From Gluconacetobacter azotocaptans (lineage in GTDB: Bacteria > Pseudomonadota > Alphaproteobacteria > Acetobacterales > Acetobacteraceae), in assembly GCF_014174355.1 (NCBI RefSeq), contig NZ_JABEQF010000005.1, positions 248,001 to 312,000 on the forward strand: 64,000 nt of DNA, given 5' to 3'. Below are positions 9,131 through 23,213 of this stretch, one piece after another. The notes below the pieces were generated by a model that worked only from the letters and a program-made list of their open reading frames with translations, made no database searches and had not been told where the DNA came from. Positions within the stretch are counted from its first letter, which is position 1. Every line of letters begins with the position of its first letter. A program made the position numbers and the translations under genes.

Positions 9131-9481
9131 CATGTACCGACTCCACGGCAATTCAATTCCACGGCAATTCAATATTTTATTTCATATCCATTGAATTTTT
9201 CCACTCTCAAATCCGTTCAGGCAGCGTGGGACAGGCAGCGGAAGCAGCTTATGACAAAGCCGTGCGGGATGAACATTTTATGGACTTTCCATTTCCTTAC
9301 GTGATAAGAAATGATTGCAAAACAACAATAAAAACCATGCAAATTCATAAGAAAATTCATTTGCGGAATTTTGATTCCGAACCAATAAATCATACAAGTC
9401 TATTGCATGTATATCGCGAGATCCGTCACAAGTATAAATTTCAAATTATAGGTGAAATTTTATTTTGAAAGGGTTGTTATT
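9131..9481. other. AT-rich intergenic region before the exopolysaccharide genes
   Basis: About 350 bases clearly richer in A and T than the rest of the window, with runs such as AATTCAATATTTTATTTC. Short frames here have no recognisable product. It probably contains promoter elements for the exopolysaccharide genes, and its composition suggests acquired DNA. Confidence 0.5.
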
Positions 9482-10099
9482 ATGAAAACCCTCGATTTTA
9501 GAAAAATGATTACGTCAGAAATATCTTCTCCAACATCGGCGGATTTTCAACGGAATGCCCAACAGGCCGTCCGCCCCTGGGCAATTTTCGGACATCCGGC
9601 GCTGTTCCTATTCGCCTCCGATGTCCTGTCCTTCATCATATCCTTCTGCATATCCTTCTGCGCCGTCCATTTCATGTCTGCCGAATTTCAGCGTCTTCTG
9701 CATCCCACGGGCATTTCAATACCCTCGCCGCATCTCCTTATGGGGCCATCGGTCGATCAGATTACCCTGTTCGTCCTGATGGCCCTTCTTTTCGCACGCC
9801 AGGGACATTATCGCGGGCAGGACTCATTCTGGGACGAAACCCGCATCGTGACCTTATCCGCGCTGGGCGCCTTTCTGATCGCGGGCGCGTTCGCCTGGAG
9901 GCGCCATGCCTCGCCGTATGATCTGCCGATGATAGGCGGGCTTCTGGCACTGTTCGCGCTGCTCGCACCCATCGCGCGCCAAGCAACCAGGCACCTCCTG
10001 CACCGGGGGCGCATAATCCAGCCGGGGCCGCGTTCCCCGCGGCATATCGGTATCGACACGTTCCCCGGCCGGCCAGGCGCCGCACCGGTCCGGACATGA
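9482..10099 (+). pseudogene. Truncated polyprenyl glycosylphosphotransferase (N-terminal membrane domain only)
   Basis: The 205-residue product starts MKTLDFRKMITSEISSPTSA and contains the multi-helix N-terminal domain of WbaP/GumD-type initiating sugar transferases (FASDVLSFIISFCISFC, LFVLMALLFARQGHY, ALGAFLIAGAFAW, MIGGLLALFALLAPIAR). These enzymes normally need 400 or more residues and end in a catalytic bacterial sugar transferase domain. That domain is absent, and only about 150 bp separate this stop from the next gene, so no frame can supply it. The last 40 residues are basic and unconserved. It is probably a remnant and should not transfer sugar phosphate. Confidence 0.65.
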
Positions 10100-14123: not shown

Positions 14124-14359
14124 ATAACCACTCCCCCGGTTCCGACACCGCCGTCTCGATGACGACCAGCGGCTGCAGGAACCGGGCATCGCCCCTGTCT
14201 CGCTGCCGAAACCAATAATTCACGAATTTTCATCTCTGTAGATTATCAATACGCGACTCAAAACCTCCGGCCTTGCCGTAGGCTCCTGACCGGACTCAGG
14301 CGACCTCGCACATCGGGTGCATCGGGGTGCCTCGTCCGATCGTTCTTCAGGAGCCGACC

Positions 14360-15331
14360 ATGCCGTTGAAGCCCAGCCTCCAGAGCCTCTCCGCCGCCAC
14401 CGTCACCACGATGAACCCGGTCCTGTCCGTCGCCGGCCGGTCGGGCGGCGCCCAGCGTTCCAATCCTGGACAGCCGGCCATGGCCAGTCATCCGACGGTC
14501 GAGGTGTCGCTGGACACGGTCGGCCGGACGTTATGGAGCTTCATGCGCCCCAACGGCCGCCCCAGCTTTTCCCCGTCCCTGCTGCGCGACCTGCACGCCA
14601 TGCAGCGATCCATCCACGACATGGCCGAGACGTCCGGGGGCACCCTGCCCTTCCGTTACATGGTCGTGGGATCGCGGGTGCCGGGGATCTTCAACCTGGG
14701 AGGCGATCTGGCCCTGTTCGCCGAAAAAATCGCCCGGGGCGACCGGGAAGGGCTGCGTCAGTATGCCCACGCCTGCGTCGACGTCGTGTTCGCGAATGCC
14801 GACGGTTACGGCCACCCTGTCACCACGGTCGCCCTGGTGCAGGGCGACGCGCTGGGCGGCGGGTTCGAGGCCGCCCTGTCGTGCGACCTGATCGTGGCCG
14901 AGAAGCAGGCCAAGTTCGGCCTGCCCGAAATCCTGTTCAACCTGTTCCCCGGCATGGGCGCCTATACGCTGCTGACGCGGCGTGTGGGTGCACGGATGGC
15001 CGAAAAAATGATCCTCAGCGGTCAGACCTATACTGCCGCCAACCTGCACGAGATGGGGGTCGTGGACATCCTGGCCGAACAGGGCGACGGCGAGGCCACG
15101 GTACGCGAGCATCTGGCGCGCATCGACCGCCGCTACAACGCGCATGAGGCCATCCAGCGGACCAAGCGCCTGGTCAATCCGGTCAGCCACCAGGAACTGC
15201 GCGACGTCACCGACATCTGGGTCGACGCCGCGCTGCGCCTGGCCGAAACCGACCTGCGCAAGATGATGCGCCTGGTCAACGCACAGAACCGGCGCATCCA
15301 GACCATCCAGGTCGAAAGCGTCGCAAGCTGA
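14360..15331 (+). CDS. rpfF: RpfF-type synthase of diffusible signal factor (crotonase family)
   Basis: RpfF makes cis-2-unsaturated fatty acid signals (DSF family) from acyl-ACP using thioesterase and dehydratase activities. The chain matches RpfF rather than ordinary enoyl-CoA hydratases: FNLGGDLALFAEKI, LVQGDALGGGFEAALSC and PEILFNLFPGMGAYTLLTRR. By count the two catalytic glutamates are E170 and E190, with the same 20-residue spacing as E141/E161 in the Xanthomonas enzyme. The 323-residue protein has a longer N terminus than RpfF of Xanthomonas. AGGAG precedes the ATG. It converges on the hybrid kinase gene, as expected for an rpf locus. Confidence 0.88.
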   Translation: MPLKPSLQSLSAATVTTMNPVLSVAGRSGGAQRSNPGQPAMASHPTVEVSLDTVGRTLWSFMRPNGRPSFSPSLLRDLHAMQRSIHDMAETSGGTLPFRYMVVGSRVPGIFNLGGDLALFAEKIARGDREGLRQYAHACVDVVFANADGYGHPVTTVALVQGDALGGGFEAALSCDLIVAEKQAKFGLPEILFNLFPGMGAYTLLTRRVGARMAEKMILSGQTYTAANLHEMGVVDILAEQGDGEATVREHLARIDRRYNAHEAIQRTKRLVNPVSHQELRDVTDIWVDAALRLAETDLRKMMRLVNAQNRRIQTIQVESVAS

Positions 15332-15350
15332 ACCGACCGACGAAGCCAAT

Positions 15351-15476
15351 GGCACAATGGGCAGGACAGGTCGGGCGTTGTCCGAACCCGCCGGTTACCC
15401 AGGGTCGGGGGCCTGAGGCCCAGGATCCCGATCATGGATAAAGGACTGGATTTCCAAAGGGCGATGCCCTTTGGCG
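15351..15476. repeat. Dispersed palindromic repeat, copy A
   Basis: Shares blocks with copies at 24336, 42882 and 46454 (read on the minus strand here): GATCGGG, GGGCCTCAGGCC, GGGTTCGG-CAACGCCCG and ACCTGTCCTGCC. Copy A also has a 9-bp hairpin, CCAAAGGGC/GCCCTTTGG, at 15454-15474. It lies between the convergent rpfF and kinase genes. Confidence 0.7.
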
Positions 15477-15505
15477 GGTTTCAGGACGGCGCCCTGAGCG
15501 GCAGA

Positions 15506-15541
15506 GCACGCTGCGATGAGGCCAACCTCATCGCAGCGTGC
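15506..15541. terminator. Perfect 16-bp hairpin overlapping the kinase stop codon
   Basis: GCACGCTGCGATGAGG and CCTCATCGCAGCGTGC pair without mismatch around a CCAA loop. The kinase stop codon (15528-15530) lies in one arm. There is no U-tract on either strand, so it could be a factor-assisted terminator or a 3' RNA-stabilising structure between convergent genes. Confidence 0.55.
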
Positions 15542-18065
15542 CTGCGTTGCCGTCCTCGGCCTGCAATACTGTATAGGGCGTCAGGGCTTCCCTGACCTTG
15601 CCCATCTCCTGGCGTATGGCGTGCAGATGCACCTGCGCCCGGTCCGGTGCGTCGTGGCCGTTGATGCCGCGCCATTCCTGACACAGGGTGGCCAGGCGTT
15701 CCGCCCCCACATTTCCCCCGGCACTGCGCAGGGCATGGGCCTCGTCCAGCAGGGCGGCCCAGTCACCGGCGTCCAGCGCCCGATCTATCCGGTCGATGAT
15801 GGCATCGGCATCCGTCAGGAACTCGCCGATGACATCGGCCCGGAACCGGTCGCCGCCCAACGTCCGCAGATCCTGCACCATCTTTCGGTTGACCGTCGCC
15901 GACGGGAACGGGACGACGACGGCCTCCTCCGCCGGGATGTCCGCCGGCCTGTCCGCATCGAGGGGGACGTCCATCCCGGTGGGTCTCGGCCGTTTCTGCC
16001 CCGCCGCAGCGGGGACCAGCGCGTCGATGGTGTCCAGCAGGGCGTCGATTTCGACCGGCTTCAGCAGGAAGCCGCTCATGCCCGCATCGCGGCAACGCTG
16101 CTGCGCCTCGGGCGTGCCGTCGGCCGTCAATGCCACGATCGGCAGGGCGGGGCCCCCGCCGACCTCGGAAAACCGGTACAGTTTCGTCGCCTCGATCCCG
16201 TTCATCACGGGCATGTTGATGTCCATGAGAACGAGGTCGAACGGTTCCTCCCCCAGCATGTCCAGGGCGTCCTCGCCGTTGGGGGCGGCCTGCCACCGGT
16301 GCCCTGCCCGGTCGAGAATCTTGCCCAGCACCTTCTGGTTGACCAGATTGTCCTCGACCAGAAGAATATTCAGCGACCGTTCGGCCCTGCCGGTCCCCGC
16401 CTCTCCGCCAATGGGCTTGCCGTCCTCATGGAACGGGATCAGACCGTCCACGATCGTCAGGAACGATGATATCGCAGCATCGTCGGCCTGGGGCGACAGG
16501 ATGGAGAGGAACCGGCAGCGCAGGGCCTCGGGCGGCAATCCGGCCTCGACATCCCTGTCGAGCAGAATTGTCGGAAACGGCGCCCCCTCCGCGTCCGATG
16601 CGTCGCCGGCGGTCATGTCCGTCAGCAGCACCGACCTGCCTTCGGGCCGGCGCATCAGCGCCGCCGCCGCTTCCCCGTTCGGGGCGACGACCGCCCCGAC
16701 GCCCTGCCGGGTCAGACGCGCGACAAGATCGGCCTGACGATCCTCCCGGCCGGTCAGCAGCACAATGCCCGGCCAAAGGCCGGCCGGCCGTTGCTCGGGC
16801 AAGGACGAGGCGGCGACCGGCTGCACCGGAATGAAGAACCAGAAGATGCTGCCTTCGCCAACGACGCTGTGCACCCCGATTTCGCCGCCCAGCAGGTCCA
16901 CCAGCTTCCGGCAGATGGCCAGCCCCAGCCCGGTACCGCCGAAACGGTCGATCACCGTGTCATCCGCCTGGGCGAATGTCTCGAACACCCGCGCCTGCGC
17001 GGCGGGGGAAATGCCGATCCCGGTATCCGACACCTCGACACGCAGGCTGGTCCCGCCGTCGCGCAGCGGACCCCCGTCGACCGCGATGACCACATGCCCA
17101 CGTTCGGTGAACTTGACGGCGTTTCCCGCCAGGTTGAGCAGGATGTCCCGCAGGTGCCGCTCGTCCCCGACCAGCCGGACCGGCGTACGCGCGGTCACAT
17201 GGCAGGCAAGCGTCAGGCCCTTCGCCCGCGCGTTGACGCCGACGATCCGCTCGACCTCGCGCAGGACCGCGAGCAGATCGAAGGGATGCAGGCGGACAGG
17301 CATCCGCCCCTCCTCGATCCTGGAAAAATCGAGAAGATCCTGGATCATGCCCAGCAGGGACGATCCCGCCCCACCGATCGTGCGTACCATGTCGCGCTGC
17401 TCGGCATTCAGGTCCGTGTCGTCGAGAAGGCGGCTCATGCCGATCACGGCATTGAGCGGCGTACGCAACTCGTGGCTGACGCTGGCGAGGAACAACGTCT
17501 TGGCACGGCTTGCCTCCTCGGCCCGCTGACGCGTTTGCGACAGGAAGCGGATGAGCGACGCCGAATAGAGCGGAATGATCAGCAGGCCGCCGACCAGTCC
17601 CGCGAACAGATAGCCCGTGTCCCGCCACATCGCCAGCCCGTGGACGGCGATGGCGAAACTCGCGGCGCCGACACACGCGGCGCCCGCAAGATAGCCCAGC
17701 CCGAAGCGGAAGCCGTACCCCAGGATGGCCCACAGATAGATCGGATAGAGCGGGACCACCGCCACGTCGCCCAGATGCATGCCCAGCGACAGGAAGATGA
17801 AATCCCAGAACATCTGACCAATGCGGCGGGTCCGCGACCGGGATGGAAACAGCACCAGCGCCACCGCGACCACGATGCCCCCCGCCAGGAAGGTGTCGCA
17901 GACGCCCGACAGCAGCAGCATCCTGGGCAGCGTCAGCGTCCCGTAGAGGTACGACCCGACCAGGTAGCCCTGTATAAGGCACGCGATTGCCAGCCGGTTC
18001 AGGACGATCTGATACTCGCCATCGCCGCCGCGCTTCATCCGCGACAGGATCTTATGCACCCACAT
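15528..18065 (-). CDS. rpfC: RpfC-like hybrid sensor histidine kinase
   Basis: An 845-residue membrane sensor with the RpfC order of domains: short N-terminal input region, five or six membrane helices (about residues 23-173), histidine kinase with H-box SVSHELRTPLNAVIGMS (H198 by count), the ATPase motifs NLAGNAVKFTERG and DTGIGIS, and FGGTGLGLAICRKLV. A degenerate receiver-like region precedes a true receiver (MDINMPVMNG, D615), and a C-terminal HPt domain has AHALRSAGGNVGA (H777). In Xanthomonas, RpfC senses DSF and passes phosphate to RpfG. The gene follows the REC-PAS-GGDEF-EAL gene by 73 bp on the same strand. The first ATG is used. MKRGGDGEYQ at 18038 is an alternative start. Confidence 0.82.
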   Translation of the reverse strand: MWVHKILSRMKRGGDGEYQIVLNRLAIACLIQGYLVGSYLYGTLTLPRMLLLSGVCDTFLAGGIVVAVALVLFPSRSRTRRIGQMFWDFIFLSLGMHLGDVAVVPLYPIYLWAILGYGFRFGLGYLAGAACVGAASFAIAVHGLAMWRDTGYLFAGLVGGLLIIPLYSASLIRFLSQTRQRAEEASRAKTLFLASVSHELRTPLNAVIGMSRLLDDTDLNAEQRDMVRTIGGAGSSLLGMIQDLLDFSRIEEGRMPVRLHPFDLLAVLREVERIVGVNARAKGLTLACHVTARTPVRLVGDERHLRDILLNLAGNAVKFTERGHVVIAVDGGPLRDGGTSLRVEVSDTGIGISPAAQARVFETFAQADDTVIDRFGGTGLGLAICRKLVDLLGGEIGVHSVVGEGSIFWFFIPVQPVAASSLPEQRPAGLWPGIVLLTGREDRQADLVARLTRQGVGAVVAPNGEAAAALMRRPEGRSVLLTDMTAGDASDAEGAPFPTILLDRDVEAGLPPEALRCRFLSILSPQADDAAISSFLTIVDGLIPFHEDGKPIGGEAGTGRAERSLNILLVEDNLVNQKVLGKILDRAGHRWQAAPNGEDALDMLGEEPFDLVLMDINMPVMNGIEATKLYRFSEVGGGPALPIVALTADGTPEAQQRCRDAGMSGFLLKPVEIDALLDTIDALVPAAAGQKRPRPTGMDVPLDADRPADIPAEEAVVVPFPSATVNRKMVQDLRTLGGDRFRADVIGEFLTDADAIIDRIDRALDAGDWAALLDEAHALRSAGGNVGAERLATLCQEWRGINGHDAPDRAQVHLHAIRQEMGKVREALTPYTVLQAEDGNAGTLR

Positions 18066-18138
18066 GGGTCATCACTTCTTCAGGGTTCCGCTGTCGTGCT
18101 GGCATTCCATGGCCCCGTTGCCCGGCAGCGGGCCGGTG

Positions 18139-20283
18139 TCAATGCTCGGGGGTGCCGGTCGCATCCGGCAGGGCCGGCGTCGGGGCGGGCAGCATCAGCC
18201 CCCCGCTGTCGATCACCGCCCGCAGCCGCGCCGGCGGCACGGGACGGCCGAAATAGAAGCCCTGCGCCTCCTGGCAATTCTGGTCCTCGAGCCAGCGTAG
18301 CTGGTCCTCGCGCTCGATCCCCTCGGCGATGACCTTGATTCCCAGATTTTCCCCCAAGGCCAGGATCGCCTTGATGATCGTCCGGCTTCCGGGCGAGGAA
18401 TCAATCTCCCGGATGAAGGCGGAATCGATCTTGAGGCGGCGGATCGGCAGTTTCGTCAGATAGATCAGGGACGCATATCCCGTTCCGAAATCGTCAATGG
18501 TGATCGACACCCCCATCCGTTGCAAAGCCGCCAGTTGGGGGCTGGCCGCCTCGGGGTTTTCGATCAGCGCGGTTTCGGTCAGCTCCAGTTCCAGAAACGC
18601 AGGGTCCAGCCCGGTTTCGGCGATGGCGTCGGTCACCAACTGGTGGACATCGTGCTGGCGAAAGAGAATACCCGAAAGATTGACCGCCACGCGCAGCGGC
18701 ATGCCGTCGCGCTTCCACAGCGCCGCCTGGCGGCAGGCCTCGCGCAGGGACCAGACGGTCATCGGCACGATCAGGCCCGTCTCCTCCGCCAGGGGCAGGA
18801 ACCGTCCGGGATAGATCAGTTCGCCATCCGGCCTCACCCACCGGATCAGGGCCTCGACCCCCATGACGGTGCCCGACCGCAGGTCGATCTCGGGCTGGTA
18901 GTGCAGTACGAATTCCTCGTTTCCCACCGCATTGCCCAGCGCTTGCTCCAGCTCGGTCGCCGCGAAAAATGCCTGTTCCATGGCGGAATCGAAAAAGGCG
19001 TACCGGCACCGTCCTTCGTTCTTGGCCTTGTACATGGCCAGGTCCGCATGCTTGAGCAATGTCCCGAAGGTCTCGTCGTCGCCCAGGAACAGGGTCACGC
19101 CGACGCTGGCGCCGACATTCATCGCCCGTTCGCCCAGGACAAACGGGCGGGCGAAGATGCCCACGATGCGTTCGGCCAGTTCGGCGGCGGCGGCCGCGTC
19201 CGCGATGTCGTGGACGATCGCGAATTCATCGCCCCCCAGACGCGCGATGACCGCGGCATGCGGCAGTGCCGTCCGCAACCGGACGGCGACCTTGCGCAGC
19301 AAAAGATCCCCGACCGTATGGCCCTGGGTATCGTTGACGCTCTTGAACCGATCCAGGTCCAGCAACATGAAGGCGAAGGGCGGCCCGCCCCCCTGCCGCT
19401 GGCCCACCATCGCCTGCATCTCGACCTCCAGCTTGGATCGGCTGGGCAGCCCGGTCAGCTGGTCGTAATAAGCCAGATGGTGCAGTTCCCACTCGGCCTT
19501 CTTCCGGTCGGTGATGTCCAGCGACGTGGTCAGGACATAGCGCAGCCCGGTGGCATCGTCGTGAAGCGGGATCTTGGACGTCAGCAGGACGCGCTCCATC
19601 CCGTACCGGTCGGCGATGGTTTCCTCGTAGCGCGCCGTCGGCAGGCCGGTTTCCAGCACCTGACGGTCGCGGAGCTGCGACGCCGCGCTGCCCGGCCCCT
19701 GCCGGGCGCCCAGCACCCGGGCGTGAAACTTGTTGGCGAAAATGTAATTCCCGTTCGCGTCCGTCGCGCTGACCATGGCGGGAACCGTGTCGATGACCTG
19801 CAACAGTTTGTCGCGACTGCCCCGCAGGATCTCGGCATGTGCCTGGCGGCTGCTTTCCAGTTCCTGTTCCAGTTCGACAGCCCGGACGCGCGCGCGCCGC
19901 CGATGCCAGCTGAGTTGCAGCAGGTTGCGCGCGCGGGTCAGGAATTCGGTATGGTCGACGGGACTGAGCAGGAAATCCGTAGCCCCCGCATCCAGCGCGT
20001 TGAGGCGATACTCGCGGTCCTCGTATGCCGTCACCACGATGACCGGCAGGTCATGCCCCCAGTCCAGGGTCCTGATGCGGGCGGTGAAGGCGGCCCCGTC
20101 CATCAGGGGCATCTTGTAGTCCGTTACGATCAGGTCGGGGATATTGTTGTCGCCGAACCAGTCGAGCGCCTCGATCGGCGTGGCGAAAACCTCGACCTGG
20201 ATGTCAGACCCCAGCGTCATCGCCAGCCGCGCGAAGATCGCCCGATTGGTGGACCGGTCGTCAACGATGGCAACAAGTCGCAT
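18139..20283 (-). CDS. REC-PAS-GGDEF-EAL response regulator
   Basis: A 714-residue regulator. The receiver (about 4-125) resembles that of RpfG (AIVDDRSTNRAIF, LIVTDYKMPLMDG with D55, NALDAGATDFLLSPVDHTEF). It is followed by a coiled linker, a PAS domain (about 155-262), a GGDEF domain (ARLGGDEFAIV, motif at 350-354) and an EAL domain (GVEALIRW, EAL at 477-479, with ELTETALI and IDDFGTGYASL intact). Both cyclic di-GMP active sites look complete. No RxxD inhibitory site precedes GGDEF. GAGG lies before the ATG. It is upstream of and co-directional with the RpfC-like kinase, its likely phosphodonor, and takes the place of the HD-GYP regulator RpfG. Confidence 0.88.
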   Translation of the reverse strand: MRLVAIVDDRSTNRAIFARLAMTLGSDIQVEVFATPIEALDWFGDNNIPDLIVTDYKMPLMDGAAFTARIRTLDWGHDLPVIVVTAYEDREYRLNALDAGATDFLLSPVDHTEFLTRARNLLQLSWHRRRARVRAVELEQELESSRQAHAEILRGSRDKLLQVIDTVPAMVSATDANGNYIFANKFHARVLGARQGPGSAASQLRDRQVLETGLPTARYEETIADRYGMERVLLTSKIPLHDDATGLRYVLTTSLDITDRKKAEWELHHLAYYDQLTGLPSRSKLEVEMQAMVGQRQGGGPPFAFMLLDLDRFKSVNDTQGHTVGDLLLRKVAVRLRTALPHAAVIARLGGDEFAIVHDIADAAAAAELAERIVGIFARPFVLGERAMNVGASVGVTLFLGDDETFGTLLKHADLAMYKAKNEGRCRYAFFDSAMEQAFFAATELEQALGNAVGNEEFVLHYQPEIDLRSGTVMGVEALIRWVRPDGELIYPGRFLPLAEETGLIVPMTVWSLREACRQAALWKRDGMPLRVAVNLSGILFRQHDVHQLVTDAIAETGLDPAFLELELTETALIENPEAASPQLAALQRMGVSITIDDFGTGYASLIYLTKLPIRRLKIDSAFIREIDSSPGSRTIIKAILALGENLGIKVIAEGIEREDQLRWLEDQNCQEAQGFYFGRPVPPARLRAVIDSGGLMLPAPTPALPDATGTPEH

Positions 20284-20753
20284 TCAGGCCTCGGCTGGGT
20301 GGGAATTCGGGCCGGACAGCCCGGCAGGGCAAATACCTGGATCCACGCCGCAATGCGGCACGCGCATCGTCATCGTATCGAAGGCCGTCCCCGTGCCCGG
20401 CATCGTAATCGGTCAAGCCGGCTTTCCAATGCATTGGGCCACAGCATGGAGCATGACGCCGCCCCATTGCCAAGCTTTTTTCCGTCCGGGACTTACCGCG
20501 CGCCCGACGGCCGCAGGGGCGGAATGGACCGGGAGCGACTGTCACAAAAGAGACACACCGGTATCGAAATATTTTTTTGCCTGCTTTTCCGGGTCGGCAC
20601 CGTGCCCCAATCCGACATTAAATTATTGAAATGACTTCGAAAGAGGCGAAGGGCATTATCGTTGCGAAACAAAAAGGATGATCATATACGATATAAGCAA
20701 TGGATCGTCGTTCGAGGGTCCACGATGCGAAGGAATCGAAAGGGCGTGGAGCA
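20284..20753. other. Intergenic region between divergent regulator and TonB receptor genes
   Basis: About 470 bp between the starts of two divergent genes, so promoters for both must lie here. The half nearest the receptor is AT-richer. No gene, clear operator or riboswitch was recognised. Confidence 0.5.
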
Positions 20754-23213
20754 ATGAGACGGAACAGCGTAACATGGGCGTTGCTGGCCACGACCATGTT
20801 TGTCTCGGGCGGGGGAGCCGTTTCGCTCGCCGCCCCGGCGCATAAGGCGCGGCACACCGCAGCCAAGGCGGCCGCCAGCCAGCCGGCCCCCGCCGTCACC
20901 CAGGTCGCGGCCGCGGCGCCGGCCGCACCCGTCGAGCATCACCGCACGGCGCTGCCCCGCACCGTCTCGGCCGAGGAGGTTGGCGTGACGGCCCGCCACC
21001 TGGTGCGGGGCGCCGATATCTCGATCGGTTCCGAAATGATCTCGCGGGCGGTGCCGGGCACCAACCCGCTGAAAGTGCTGGCGTCCCAGCCGGGCATCAT
21101 GTTCCAGTCGGATGACCCGCAGGGCGTCGATACCTGGTCCACGCAGATCTACATGCACGGGTTCATGCAGAACCAGATCGGCACGACGCTGGACGACATC
21201 CCGCTGGGCGAGCTTGTCTATCGCAACTATAACGGCCTCAACCCGGTCCAGGCCATCAGCTCGGAAAACGTGCAGCGCCTGAACGTCTCGATGGGCGCCG
21301 GCGCCGAGGAAGTCGCCAGCACCAACAATCTGGGCGGCTCGATCGAGTACGTGTCCTCCGACCCGAAGAACAAGATGGGCGCGACGCTGGCCCAGACCTT
21401 CGGCAGCAACAGCCTGTTCCACACCTTCATCCGCCTGGACAGCGGCAAGCTGAACAGCTCCGGCACCAAGTTCTTCGTGTCCTATATGCGTAACGATACG
21501 GACAAGTGGAAGGGCGGCGGCATCCAGTTCATGCAGCAGGTCAATGCGAAGGTCGTGCAGCCTGTCGGCGAAAACAGCCGCATCTCCGCGTTCTTCGATT
21601 ACAGCAACCTGGCCCAGTTCAACTACCAGGACTATTCGCTGGATATCTGGAAGAACGGCGGCAAGAATATCGACAACTACTATAACGGCAAATACAGCGG
21701 CTACCAGGCCTCCTACGCCGCCGCACTGTGTACCGCCTTCGCCACGCCTCAGCCCGGATGCGCCTATCCGGCCAGCCTCAGCAAGATCACCGACAAGGCC
21801 GACGCCGCCTACTATGACGGCGCAACCGCCGTGACCGACTATTTCGGTGGCCTGACGGGCGATTTCGAGCTGACCGACCGCATGCGCTGGAAAACGACGG
21901 TCTACGGCCACGGCGAGACCAGCCATCTGACCTGGTCTAACCCGTTCTACCCCTCGCCGAACGGCGCGCCGATGTTCGAACAGGTGAAGGAGCCGGGCAT
22001 CCAGCGCTTCGGCCTCCTGTCGTCCGTCACCTACGACATCGCCCATAACCACATCAGCGGCGGCGTCTGGTACGAGAACAACAAGTTCGTCTCGAGCATG
22101 GTCGGCTACCAACAGCCCCTTCTGGGCCAGGGCGATCCGATCTACACGATCGGCAGCTACGCCAACCTGACGCCGTTCATGAAGATCTTCGGGCAGACCA
22201 TCAACACGAACACCTTCACCGCGTTCGTGGAAGACACCTACCATCCGGTCAGCAACCTCGACCTGCATTTCGGCTTCAAGTCTCTGCTCAACACGTCGCG
22301 CGCCGGCGACGGATACTACAACAATGCGTATTACGGCACCGACGATTCCATGGCCGCCGGAACGCTGACCTCGGCCGCCGCCTTCCTGCCGCATATCAGC
22401 GCGGACTGGCACTTCCTGCGGCATCATGAACTGTTCTTCGACGTGTCGGAGAACATGCACGCCTACCCGCAGGCGCAGTTCAAGACCGCCGCATCGCCGT
22501 TCGCCGTGACGCAGGCCGCCTATAACCTCGCCACCCCGAGCTTGAAACCGGAAACCGACTGGGCCTATTCGGTGGGGTACCGCTTTACGCACCGTCTGCT
22601 GAGCGCGTCGATTTACGCCTATCACGTCGACTACAAGAACCGCCTGCAACAGATCCAGAGCGGCAGCATCGTGAACCCGGTCGCTTCGGTGCTGAACGTG
22701 GGTGGCGTAACCATGAACGGCGTCGATGCCGGCCTGACGCTGACGCCGGTCGAAGGGCTCTCGCTGTTCAACAGCGTCAGCTACAATCACTCGACCTATG
22801 ACGACAACATCACCCAGGGCACCACGGTCTACCATCTCGCGGGCAGCCAGGTCGTCGCCTATCCGCGCTTCATGTATAAGTCGAGCCTGTCCTACGAATG
22901 GGGCGCCTTCCTGGCGCATATCGACGCGTCCTACATGTCGAAGCGTAACCTGAGCTACAACGGCGACACCAAGGTTCCCAGCTACTGGCTGGCCAATGCG
23001 GGCCTGCGCTATCGCCTGGGCAACATGGGGAAATACAACCACCATCTCGCGTTCATGCAGAACCTGACCTTCGACTTCAACGTCTACAACCTCGCCAATA
23101 CGACCTATGTCGCGACGATGGGCGAGAACGGCTTCAACCTGGCGGGCGATGCCCAGTCCTTCGAACTTGGCGCGCCGCGTCAGTTCTTCGGTTCCGTGCG
23201 CGTCGAATTCTGA
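20754..23213 (+). CDS. TonB-dependent outer-membrane receptor
   Basis: An 819-residue outer-membrane transporter. The signal peptide (MRRNSVTWALLATTMFVSGG onward) is followed by an Ala/Pro/Lys-rich linker, then a plug domain (NPLKVLASQPGIMFQSDD, IYMHGFMQNQIGTTLDDIPL, NNLGGSIEYVSSDPKN) and a beta-barrel closing with an aromatic-type C terminus (FGSVRVEF). It resembles the receptor at 56670-59039, for example SGTKFFVSYMRNDTDKWKGGG, so the two are paralogues. The start at 20754 follows GTGGAG. Substrate unknown. No transporter or sigma/anti-sigma pair lies beside it. A strong terminator follows. Confidence 0.9.
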   Translation: MRRNSVTWALLATTMFVSGGGAVSLAAPAHKARHTAAKAAASQPAPAVTQVAAAAPAAPVEHHRTALPRTVSAEEVGVTARHLVRGADISIGSEMISRAVPGTNPLKVLASQPGIMFQSDDPQGVDTWSTQIYMHGFMQNQIGTTLDDIPLGELVYRNYNGLNPVQAISSENVQRLNVSMGAGAEEVASTNNLGGSIEYVSSDPKNKMGATLAQTFGSNSLFHTFIRLDSGKLNSSGTKFFVSYMRNDTDKWKGGGIQFMQQVNAKVVQPVGENSRISAFFDYSNLAQFNYQDYSLDIWKNGGKNIDNYYNGKYSGYQASYAAALCTAFATPQPGCAYPASLSKITDKADAAYYDGATAVTDYFGGLTGDFELTDRMRWKTTVYGHGETSHLTWSNPFYPSPNGAPMFEQVKEPGIQRFGLLSSVTYDIAHNHISGGVWYENNKFVSSMVGYQQPLLGQGDPIYTIGSYANLTPFMKIFGQTINTNTFTAFVEDTYHPVSNLDLHFGFKSLLNTSRAGDGYYNNAYYGTDDSMAAGTLTSAAAFLPHISADWHFLRHHELFFDVSENMHAYPQAQFKTAASPFAVTQAAYNLATPSLKPETDWAYSVGYRFTHRLLSASIYAYHVDYKNRLQQIQSGSIVNPVASVLNVGGVTMNGVDAGLTLTPVEGLSLFNSVSYNHSTYDDNITQGTTVYHLAGSQVVAYPRFMYKSSLSYEWGAFLAHIDASYMSKRNLSYNGDTKVPSYWLANAGLRYRLGNMGKYNHHLAFMQNLTFDFNVYNLANTTYVATMGENGFNLAGDAQSFELGAPRQFFGSVRVEF

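What the first reader, a model, noticed from the sequence alone, without database searches (positions are those of the whole stretch)
14360..20283. An Rpf/DSF quorum-sensing locus in an acetic acid bacterium, next to exopolysaccharide genes
RpfF-type synthase motifs with two correctly spaced catalytic glutamates (E170/E190) face an RpfC-like hybrid kinase (H198, D615, H777 relay) and a cyclic di-GMP regulator. DSF systems are best known in xanthomonads and Burkholderia. Here manC and galE end 236 bp before rpfF, which suggests that a fatty-acid signal controls exopolysaccharide or biofilm.
Basis: partly seen in the sequence, partly recalled or inferred. Interest (0 to 1): 0.85.

Follow-up and report, generated by a model that had tools for sequence, protein, structure and literature searches.

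The report
DSF-type quorum-sensing locus, new output
An acetic acid bacterium carries a likely fatty-acid cell-to-cell signalling system of the kind known from Xanthomonas, but its response regulator has a different output part; related loci occur across its family, and I found no description of this form in the papers I could search.

Summary
The window (genus Gluconacetobacter) has rpfF at 14360-15331 (+), converging on rpfC (15528-18065, -) and a c-di-GMP regulator (18139-20283, -). In a tree RpfF separates from 12 ordinary crotonases (100/100). 73 of 299 Acetobacteraceae genomes carry this RpfF family; 68 of these also have the RpfC input domain, 7 others have only the kinase, 219 neither.

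The regulator is the main surprise. Its receiver is of RpfG type (9 of 9 RpfG receivers outscore all RpfC and own-genome receivers tested), but HD-GYP is replaced by PAS-GGDEF-EAL, so it is neither RpfG nor RpfR. RpfC with such a regulator occurs in 36 of 74 Acetobacteraceae loci and 3 other alphaproteobacterial ones, one without a detected PAS. Gln22, important for DSF sensing in Xanthomonas RpfC, is Gln in 9 of 9 RpfG-linked kinases but Met/Ile in 48 of 49 linked to the new regulators: perhaps a different ligand fit.

The exopolysaccharide link is weak: manC and galE lie beside rpfF only here and in two sister species. DSF production is untested.

The parts
14360..15331 (+). rpfF-like gene: PRK08788/RpfF-type crotonase with E170 and E190 (alternative GTG start at 14327)
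   Evidence: both Glu present in 100 of 100 aligned RpfF rows (L151, split gene, not included); 29 RpfF rows against 12 crotonases, 100/100
15332..15527 (.). convergent intergenic gap between rpfF and rpfC (196 bp)
   Evidence: 54 of 64 rpfF-rpfC pairs are convergent, 5 divergent, 5 on one strand
15528..18065 (-). rpfC-like hybrid kinase: membrane input domain, HisKA (H198), HATPase, REC (D615), Hpt (H777)
   Evidence: its receiver alone has RpfC's receiver (3m6m_D) as best PDB match, 90.4 bits, next 78.8
17550..18065 (-). RpfC input domain (aa 1-172): N-terminal sensor motif RGGDGEYQ, then hydrophobic segments consistent with about five membrane helices
   Evidence: crude hydropathy
18139..20283 (-). 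response regulator REC-PAS-GGDEF-EAL in the position where xanthomonad-type loci have rpfG; likely in one operon with rpfC
19933..20274 (-). RpfG-type receiver of that regulator (aa 4-117)
   Evidence: 9 of 9 RpfG receivers at 77.6-111.6 bits; best RpfC receiver 36.9, best other own-genome receiver 31.8
18241..18945 (-). EAL domain (aa 447-681), all motifs checked present
19009..19473 (-). GGDEF domain (aa 271-425), GGDEF motif present, no RxxD inhibitory site

Best explanation
This is a complete DSF-type quorum-sensing module. RpfF makes a cis-2-unsaturated fatty acid from acyl-ACP. The signal builds up with cell density and is sensed by the N-terminal membrane input domain of RpfC. RpfC then passes phosphate H198 -> D615 -> H777 and on to the receiver of the regulator encoded just upstream of it. 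Phosphorylation changes the activity of the PAS-GGDEF-EAL output, most likely turning on c-di-GMP breakdown by the EAL domain, and so switches c-di-GMP-dependent behaviour. It works like Xanthomonas RpfF/RpfC/RpfG but with RpfG's HD-GYP output replaced by PAS-GGDEF-EAL. Shown here: homology, presence of the catalytic and phosphorelay residues, gene order, co-occurrence, matching trees, and the RpfG-type receiver. Inferred: the chemical signal, its binding, the phosphotransfer to this regulator, the sign of the c-di-GMP change, and the regulated behaviour.
For: RpfF family and clade; both catalytic Glu in 100 of 100 rows. RpfC input domain related to that of kinases in rpfG loci; best PDB match of the RpfC receiver is RpfC. 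rpfF with RpfC input domain: 68 genomes both, 5 rpfF only, 7 kinase only, 219 neither, of 299 (Fisher p = 1e-52, not corrected for shared ancestry). RpfF and RpfC distances agree: Mantel r 0.87 over 61 loci (shuffled maximum 0.42), 0.75 over 52 loci after removing the RpfG-type loci and L162 (shuffled maximum 0.31); shared descent of the genomes alone would also give some agreement. Regulator upstream of rpfC on the same strand in 58 of 58 loci that have both. Receiver of RpfG type. GGDEF and EAL motifs present.
Against: No biochemistry. NCBIfam's RpfF cut-off is not met (240 vs 550). The alpha RpfFs lie outside the clade that holds the RpfG- and RpfR-linked RpfFs (97/90), so function is inferred from a sister group. 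Of five Xanthomonas RpfC residues essential for DSF (PMC5391125), the window keeps D17 and E19 but has R15G, S18G and Q22I. In the receiver tree RpfG and the new regulators are not resolved as sisters. On the RpfF tree the linkage label needs 12 changes, so the neighbourhood is labile. The GGDEF motif is also present, so the net enzymatic sign is uncertain.
Confidence: 0.78

Rival explanations
1. RpfF makes a DSF-family signal, but RpfC senses a clearly different fatty acid from the Xanthomonas one, or senses it in another way, because the sensor motif has changed.
For: Xanthomonas Q22 is Q in 9 of 9 RpfG-linked kinases (three of them near-copies: L125, L126, L128) but M or I in 38 of 39 kinases linked to a REC/GGDEF/EAL regulator and 10 of 10 linked to REC-PAS. 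In Xanthomonas Q22A, D17A and S18A cut the response to added DSF to 22.9-32.9% of wild type (PMC5391125, passages read). In Gluconacetobacter R15 and S18 have changed too.
Against: E19 is E in 62 of 64 and D in 2; D17 is kept in the window; other Acetobacteraceae keep GRPDSEHEM. Lineage and output type are confounded, so the change may be neutral drift. This refines the main reading rather than excluding it.
Confidence: 0.4
2. RpfF is a lipid-metabolism thioesterase/dehydratase without a signalling role, and the kinase responds to membrane or fatty-acid stress.
For: No signal has been shown. A characterised RpfF also has thioesterase activity, and loss of RpfF in another species changes several fatty acids (PMC4504480, passages read). 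Two G143 loci and one G258 locus carry rpfF with no RpfC input domain found in those genomes; beside one of them (L078) a different kinase converges on rpfF.
Against: Co-occurrence of RpfF and the RpfC input domain with matching trees, and absence of both from four Gluconacetobacter genomes.
Confidence: 0.15
3. The module specifically controls exopolysaccharide made by the neighbouring manC-galE-glycosyltransferase genes.
For: They lie beside rpfF in the window, G. johannae and G. tumulisoli. c-di-GMP commonly controls polysaccharide production (general knowledge).
Against: GT4 and manC were found near rpfF in none of the other 98 loci, including congeners L083 and L089; only L150 and L154 show weak galE-like matches of 59 and 62 bits. 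Upstream flanks reach at least 5 kb in 90 of 101 loci. Only relatives of the window's own neighbours were sought, so other polysaccharide genes would be missed. 236 bp separate galE from rpfF.
Confidence: 0.15
4. The regulator is an RpfR-like protein that senses the signal directly through its PAS domain, with RpfC as a second input.
For: Same PAS-GGDEF-EAL order as RpfR; a PAS profile comparison with six RpfR-type proteins gives 88.6% probability.
Against: GGDEF-EAL is no closer to RpfR-type proteins than to unrelated paralogues of the same genome, and in that set the PAS matches only its own kin by phmmer. The profile match may be general PAS similarity. An RpfG-type receiver precedes it.
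Confidence: 0.12

Closest known systems
RpfF/RpfC/RpfG (xanthomonads; also Leptospirillum, Acidithiobacillus)
   Same: RpfF-type synthase, RpfC-type hybrid kinase, RpfG-type receiver; rpfF convergent to the regulator-kinase operon
   Different: HD-GYP of RpfG replaced by PAS-GGDEF-EAL; the own-genome search with Pfam HD_5 gave one match, a 208-aa ORF without a receiver; Q22 of the sensor replaced by Ile
RpfF/RpfR (Burkholderia, Cronobacter and relatives)
   Same: rpfF beside a PAS-GGDEF-EAL c-di-GMP protein
   Different: RpfR is described as PAS-GGDEF-EAL without a receiver (PMC4504480, passages); here an RpfC phosphorelay and an RpfG-type receiver are present, and the GGDEF-EAL part is not specifically related to RpfR-type proteins
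RpfF structures 7zq7, 3m6m, 5fus, 6dgn
   Same: best four matches in the PDB; 44% identity over 276 aa to the RpfF of L125, whose 289 residues are those of 7zq7
   Different: N-terminal extension of about 30 residues from the ATG; alpha branch outside the clade of the RpfG- and RpfR-linked RpfFs

Membership tests
RpfF, broad family (NCBIfam PRK08788) | Curated score cut-off 177 bits | tested here: met
   378 bits
RpfF, broad family (NCBIfam PRK08788) | Clade apart from ordinary crotonases | tested here: met
   29 of 100 RpfF rows (chosen by me) against 12 crotonases, 100/100; two earlier trees with poor outgroups did not resolve this
RpfF, broad family (NCBIfam PRK08788) | Two catalytic glutamates (Xanthomonas E141/E161, as named in PMC9040811) | tested here: met
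   E170/E190 align with the two Glu of 3m6m; 100 of 100 rows
RpfF, NCBIfam equivalog NF053515 (xanthomonad-type) | Curated cut-off 550 bits | tested here: not met
   240 bits. Among the reference-type controls L125 scores 580 (passes), L133 370, the RpfR-linked L129 and L130 181; the two alpha kin L083 and L098 score 244 and 224. So not filed under this equivalog
DSF synthase | Makes a cis-2-unsaturated fatty acid | not testable with these tools
   needs LC-MS
RpfC | Membrane input domain of RpfC type followed by HisKA-HATPase-REC-Hpt | tested here: met
RpfC | Receiver of RpfC type | tested here: met
   best PDB match 3m6m_D
RpfC | Encoded with rpfF | tested here: met
   196 bp, convergent; 68 of 73 rpfF genomes have the input domain
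RpfC | Five residues essential for DSF sensing (R15, D17, S18, E19, Q22) | tested here: inconclusive
   D17 and E19 kept, three changed in the window
RpfG | RpfG-type receiver | tested here: met
   (scores); sister relation not resolved in the tree
RpfG | HD-GYP output domain | tested here: not met
   PAS-GGDEF-EAL instead
RpfR | PAS-GGDEF-EAL order | tested here: met
RpfR | No receiver; GGDEF-EAL of RpfR lineage | tested here: not met
   receiver present; nine RpfR-type proteins 178-332 bits vs six own paralogues 171-329

The most novel reading that the evidence does not exclude
A third core DSF pathway, centred on Acetobacteraceae: RpfC phosphorylates an RpfG-type receiver that drives a PAS-GGDEF-EAL output, so that a fatty-acid signal can tune c-di-GMP in both directions and be gated by a second, PAS-sensed cue; together with the Gln22-to-Met/Ile shift in the sensor, it listens to its own DSF variant. 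In one branch the c-di-GMP domains are lost altogether, leaving a REC-PAS regulator.
Probability: 0.4. Interest if true: 0.75.

Novelty: new variant of a known kind. Interest (0 to 1): 0.58.

Why it matters
A 2015 review describes two core DSF circuits (PMC4504480). If confirmed, this is a third. RpfF of this family is in 73 of 299 Acetobacteraceae genomes sampled, and in 35 of the 299 it sits beside RpfC and the new regulator (the 36 loci less L005, which is outside the sample). The family includes vinegar and cellulose producers and plant associates (general knowledge). The locus offers a natural output-domain swap behind a conserved receiver, and a single sensor position (22) that changes with the output, which makes fatty-acid specificity directly testable.

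Tried and rejected
Exopolysaccharide linkage as a conserved feature: rejected. RpfR ancestry of the regulator: rejected by score comparison; the PAS profile match of 88.6% is too general to decide. Two RpfF trees with crotonase outgroups were inconclusive because the outgroup rows were very long or fragmentary; replaced by 12 fresh crotonases. The receiver tree does not resolve RpfG and the new regulators as sisters, so that claim rests on scores.

Rows dropped or not used: L151 (its rpfF is split over two ORFs) from the RpfF trees and the Glu count; 17 of 103 rows (3 outgroup, 14 others, mostly long or near-identical) from the tree; 71 of 100 RpfF rows from the tree; L126 and L099 from the RpfC tree. 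The receiver tree used 23 of 41 new-type regulators, 10 REC-PAS, 9 RpfG, 12 RpfC receivers, and 26 of the 28 other receiver matches of the own genome. G219 (gene split over contigs) was not fetched. Genome searches score only part of their candidates (at most 7 per genome, 11), so absences there are not certain.

Literature: 10 searches of an open-access library; lists were cut (12 of 26 shown; 12 of 50; 15 of 31; 10 of 14). No listed title or abstract start was about Rpf in Acetobacteraceae. I read passages or outlines of eight papers, none in full: PMC7889782, PMC9878147, PMC4504480, PMC10304161, PMC5391125, PMC9040811, PMC8357829, PMC10972369. Most subscription papers and preprints were not covered.
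Full report
What is there. The window lies in a genome of the genus Gluconacetobacter (nearest RpfF: G. johannae 93%, G. tumulisoli 91%). rpfF (14360-15331, +) converges on an operon-like pair on the - strand: a regulator (18139-20283) followed 73 bp later by a hybrid kinase (15528-18065).

Is it RpfF? NCBIfam PRK08788 gives 378 bits (cut-off 177) and the next ordinary crotonase model 85. The four best solved structures score 188-212 bits, the fifth entry 67. With 12 ordinary crotonases from related genomes as outgroup, 29 RpfF rows form one side of a branch with support 100/100. Both catalytic Glu are present in 100 of 100 rows. Against this, the xanthomonad-type NCBIfam model is not reached (240 vs 550). 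In a control run of six, only L125, whose RpfF has the sequence of the solved 7zq7, passes (580); L133, in a locus with RpfG, scores 370, the RpfR-linked L129 and L130 181, and the alpha kin L083 and L098 244 and 224. The alpha RpfFs lie outside the clade of the RpfG- and RpfR-linked ones (97/90), so the product is inferred.

Is it RpfC? Its receiver, searched alone, has the receiver of RpfC (3m6m) as best solved match, 90.4 bits, the next 78.8. The membrane input domain matches those of kinases in loci with rpfG (28% identity to L125). Hydropathy shows about five hydrophobic segments, a crude estimate. In 299 Acetobacteraceae genomes, 68 have both RpfF and the input domain, 5 only RpfF, 7 only the input domain, 219 neither. 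Several single cases are incomplete assemblies or short contigs, but G143 and G258 have rpfF and no input domain was found. In the genus, 9 of 14 genomes have RpfF and 10 of 14 the input domain; the same four lack both, and G696, with only the kinase, is a fragmented assembly. RpfF and RpfC trees agree (Mantel 0.87 over 61 loci, shuffled maximum 0.42; 0.75 over 52 loci without the RpfG-type ones and L162, shuffled maximum 0.31); common descent of the genomes would give part of this.

The regulator. In 101 loci examined (74 Acetobacteraceae, 27 other), the neighbourhood labels were: RpfC + REC/GGDEF/EAL 39 (36 in the family), RpfC + REC-PAS only 10, RpfC + RpfG 9, RpfR type (GGDEF-EAL, no such receiver) 9, RpfC alone 6, regulator alone 2, none of these nearby 26. 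A PAS was detected in 40 of the 41 REC/GGDEF/EAL proteins, not in L157. Of the 20 Acetobacteraceae genomes with nothing nearby (21 loci), 15 have an RpfC input domain elsewhere. Wherever regulator and RpfC occur together, the regulator is upstream on the same strand (58 of 58). On the RpfF tree the RpfC + REC/GGDEF/EAL label needs 12 changes, so linkage is often lost or moved. The window regulator's receiver scores 77.6-111.6 bits to 9 of 9 RpfG receivers (three near-copies), at most 36.9 to 12 RpfC receivers and at most 31.8 to 26 of the 28 other receivers found in its own genome. In a quick tree the receivers of the new regulators (23 of 41 used) and of the 10 REC-PAS proteins form one group (98), with RpfG nearby but unresolved. 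So the receiver is of RpfG type and the output differs. The RpfC tree separates the kinases of loci with rpfG (plus L162) from the rest by one change. GGDEF-EAL is not specifically close to RpfR-type proteins. The Pfam HD_5 search of the genome gave one match, a 208-aa ORF without a receiver.

Catalysis. In the window the GGDEF motif is present without an RxxD inhibitory site, and every EAL motif I checked is present. Over 41 such proteins, by simple patterns, GG[DE][EQ]F is present in 38, EALxR in 38, DDFG in 35 and the QG motif in 26; the I-site is present in 18 of the 38. The sign of the output is therefore a guess: I favour breakdown.

Sensor residues. Xanthomonas RpfC needs R15, D17, S18, E19 and Q22 for DSF (PMC5391125, abstract and passages). 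Over 64 input domains E19 is E in 62 and D in 2. Q22 is Q in 9 of 9 RpfG-linked kinases (three near-copies), M or I in 38 of 39 (REC/GGDEF/EAL), 10 of 10 (REC-PAS) and 5 of 6 (RpfC alone). Lineage and output type are confounded, so this is a lead, not proof.

Polysaccharide. GT4, manC and galE flank rpfF in the window, L004 and L005 only. L150 and L154 show weak galE-like matches (59 and 62 bits); in the other 96 loci no relative of these three genes was found in the fetched flanks, which reach at least 5 kb upstream in 90 of 101 loci.

What is known. A 2015 review names two core pathways, RpfCG and RpfR (PMC4504480, passages). DSF loci with rpfG are reported in Leptospirillum (PMC8357829, passages) and Acidithiobacillus (PMC9040811, passages); the passages of the latter that I saw assign DSF systems to those two genera and an AHL-degrading enzyme to some Acidiphilium, which belongs to Acetobacteraceae (recalled). 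A review on acetic acid bacteria mentions DSF once, in a general list (PMC7889782, passages). I found no report of an RpfC with a REC-PAS-GGDEF-EAL partner in the 10 searches listed, within an open-access library.

Range. The input-domain profile hits 24 of 385 genomes in a class-wide sample, the window's own included; those loci were not examined.

Noticed in passing
L075, L077, L086, L101, L106, L111, L113, L114, L122, L151: Ten rpf loci have a regulator with REC-PAS only (253-291 aa in nine; the L111 ORF is open far upstream, probably a start-choice artefact), no GGDEF-EAL. In L086 and L114, the two checked, the gene just upstream encodes a PAS-HWE histidine kinase.
   Followed up: partly
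window 9452-10099: ORF of 215 aa upstream of the glycosyltransferase with no Pfam match; only partial matches in L004 and L005. It looks like a remnant, perhaps of a membrane part of a sugar transferase (recalled resemblance only).
   Followed up: partly
L125, L126, L128: Kinase ORF of 910 aa with two RpfC-type input domains in tandem, as if rpfH were fused to rpfC.
   Followed up: no
L078 and L112 (both genome G143): Two rpfF copies in one genome in which no RpfC input domain was found; beside L078 a different kinase (737 aa) converges on rpfF.
   Followed up: no
G693 C16 (same genus): A divergent rpf pair in a Gluconacetobacter genome: RpfF 56% and input domain 36% identical, on opposite strands about 2 kb apart, as expected for a convergent pair; possibly a separate acquisition.
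   Followed up: no
L151: rpfF is split over two ORFs (126 and 244 aa) while its neighbours rpfC and REC-PAS are open.
   Followed up: no
L157 (other alphaproteobacterium): Regulator with REC-GGDEF-EAL and no detected PAS beside RpfC and RpfF.
   Followed up: no
window 20700-23213: TonB-dependent receptor next to the regulator gene; the same order is kept in L004 and L005.
   Followed up: no
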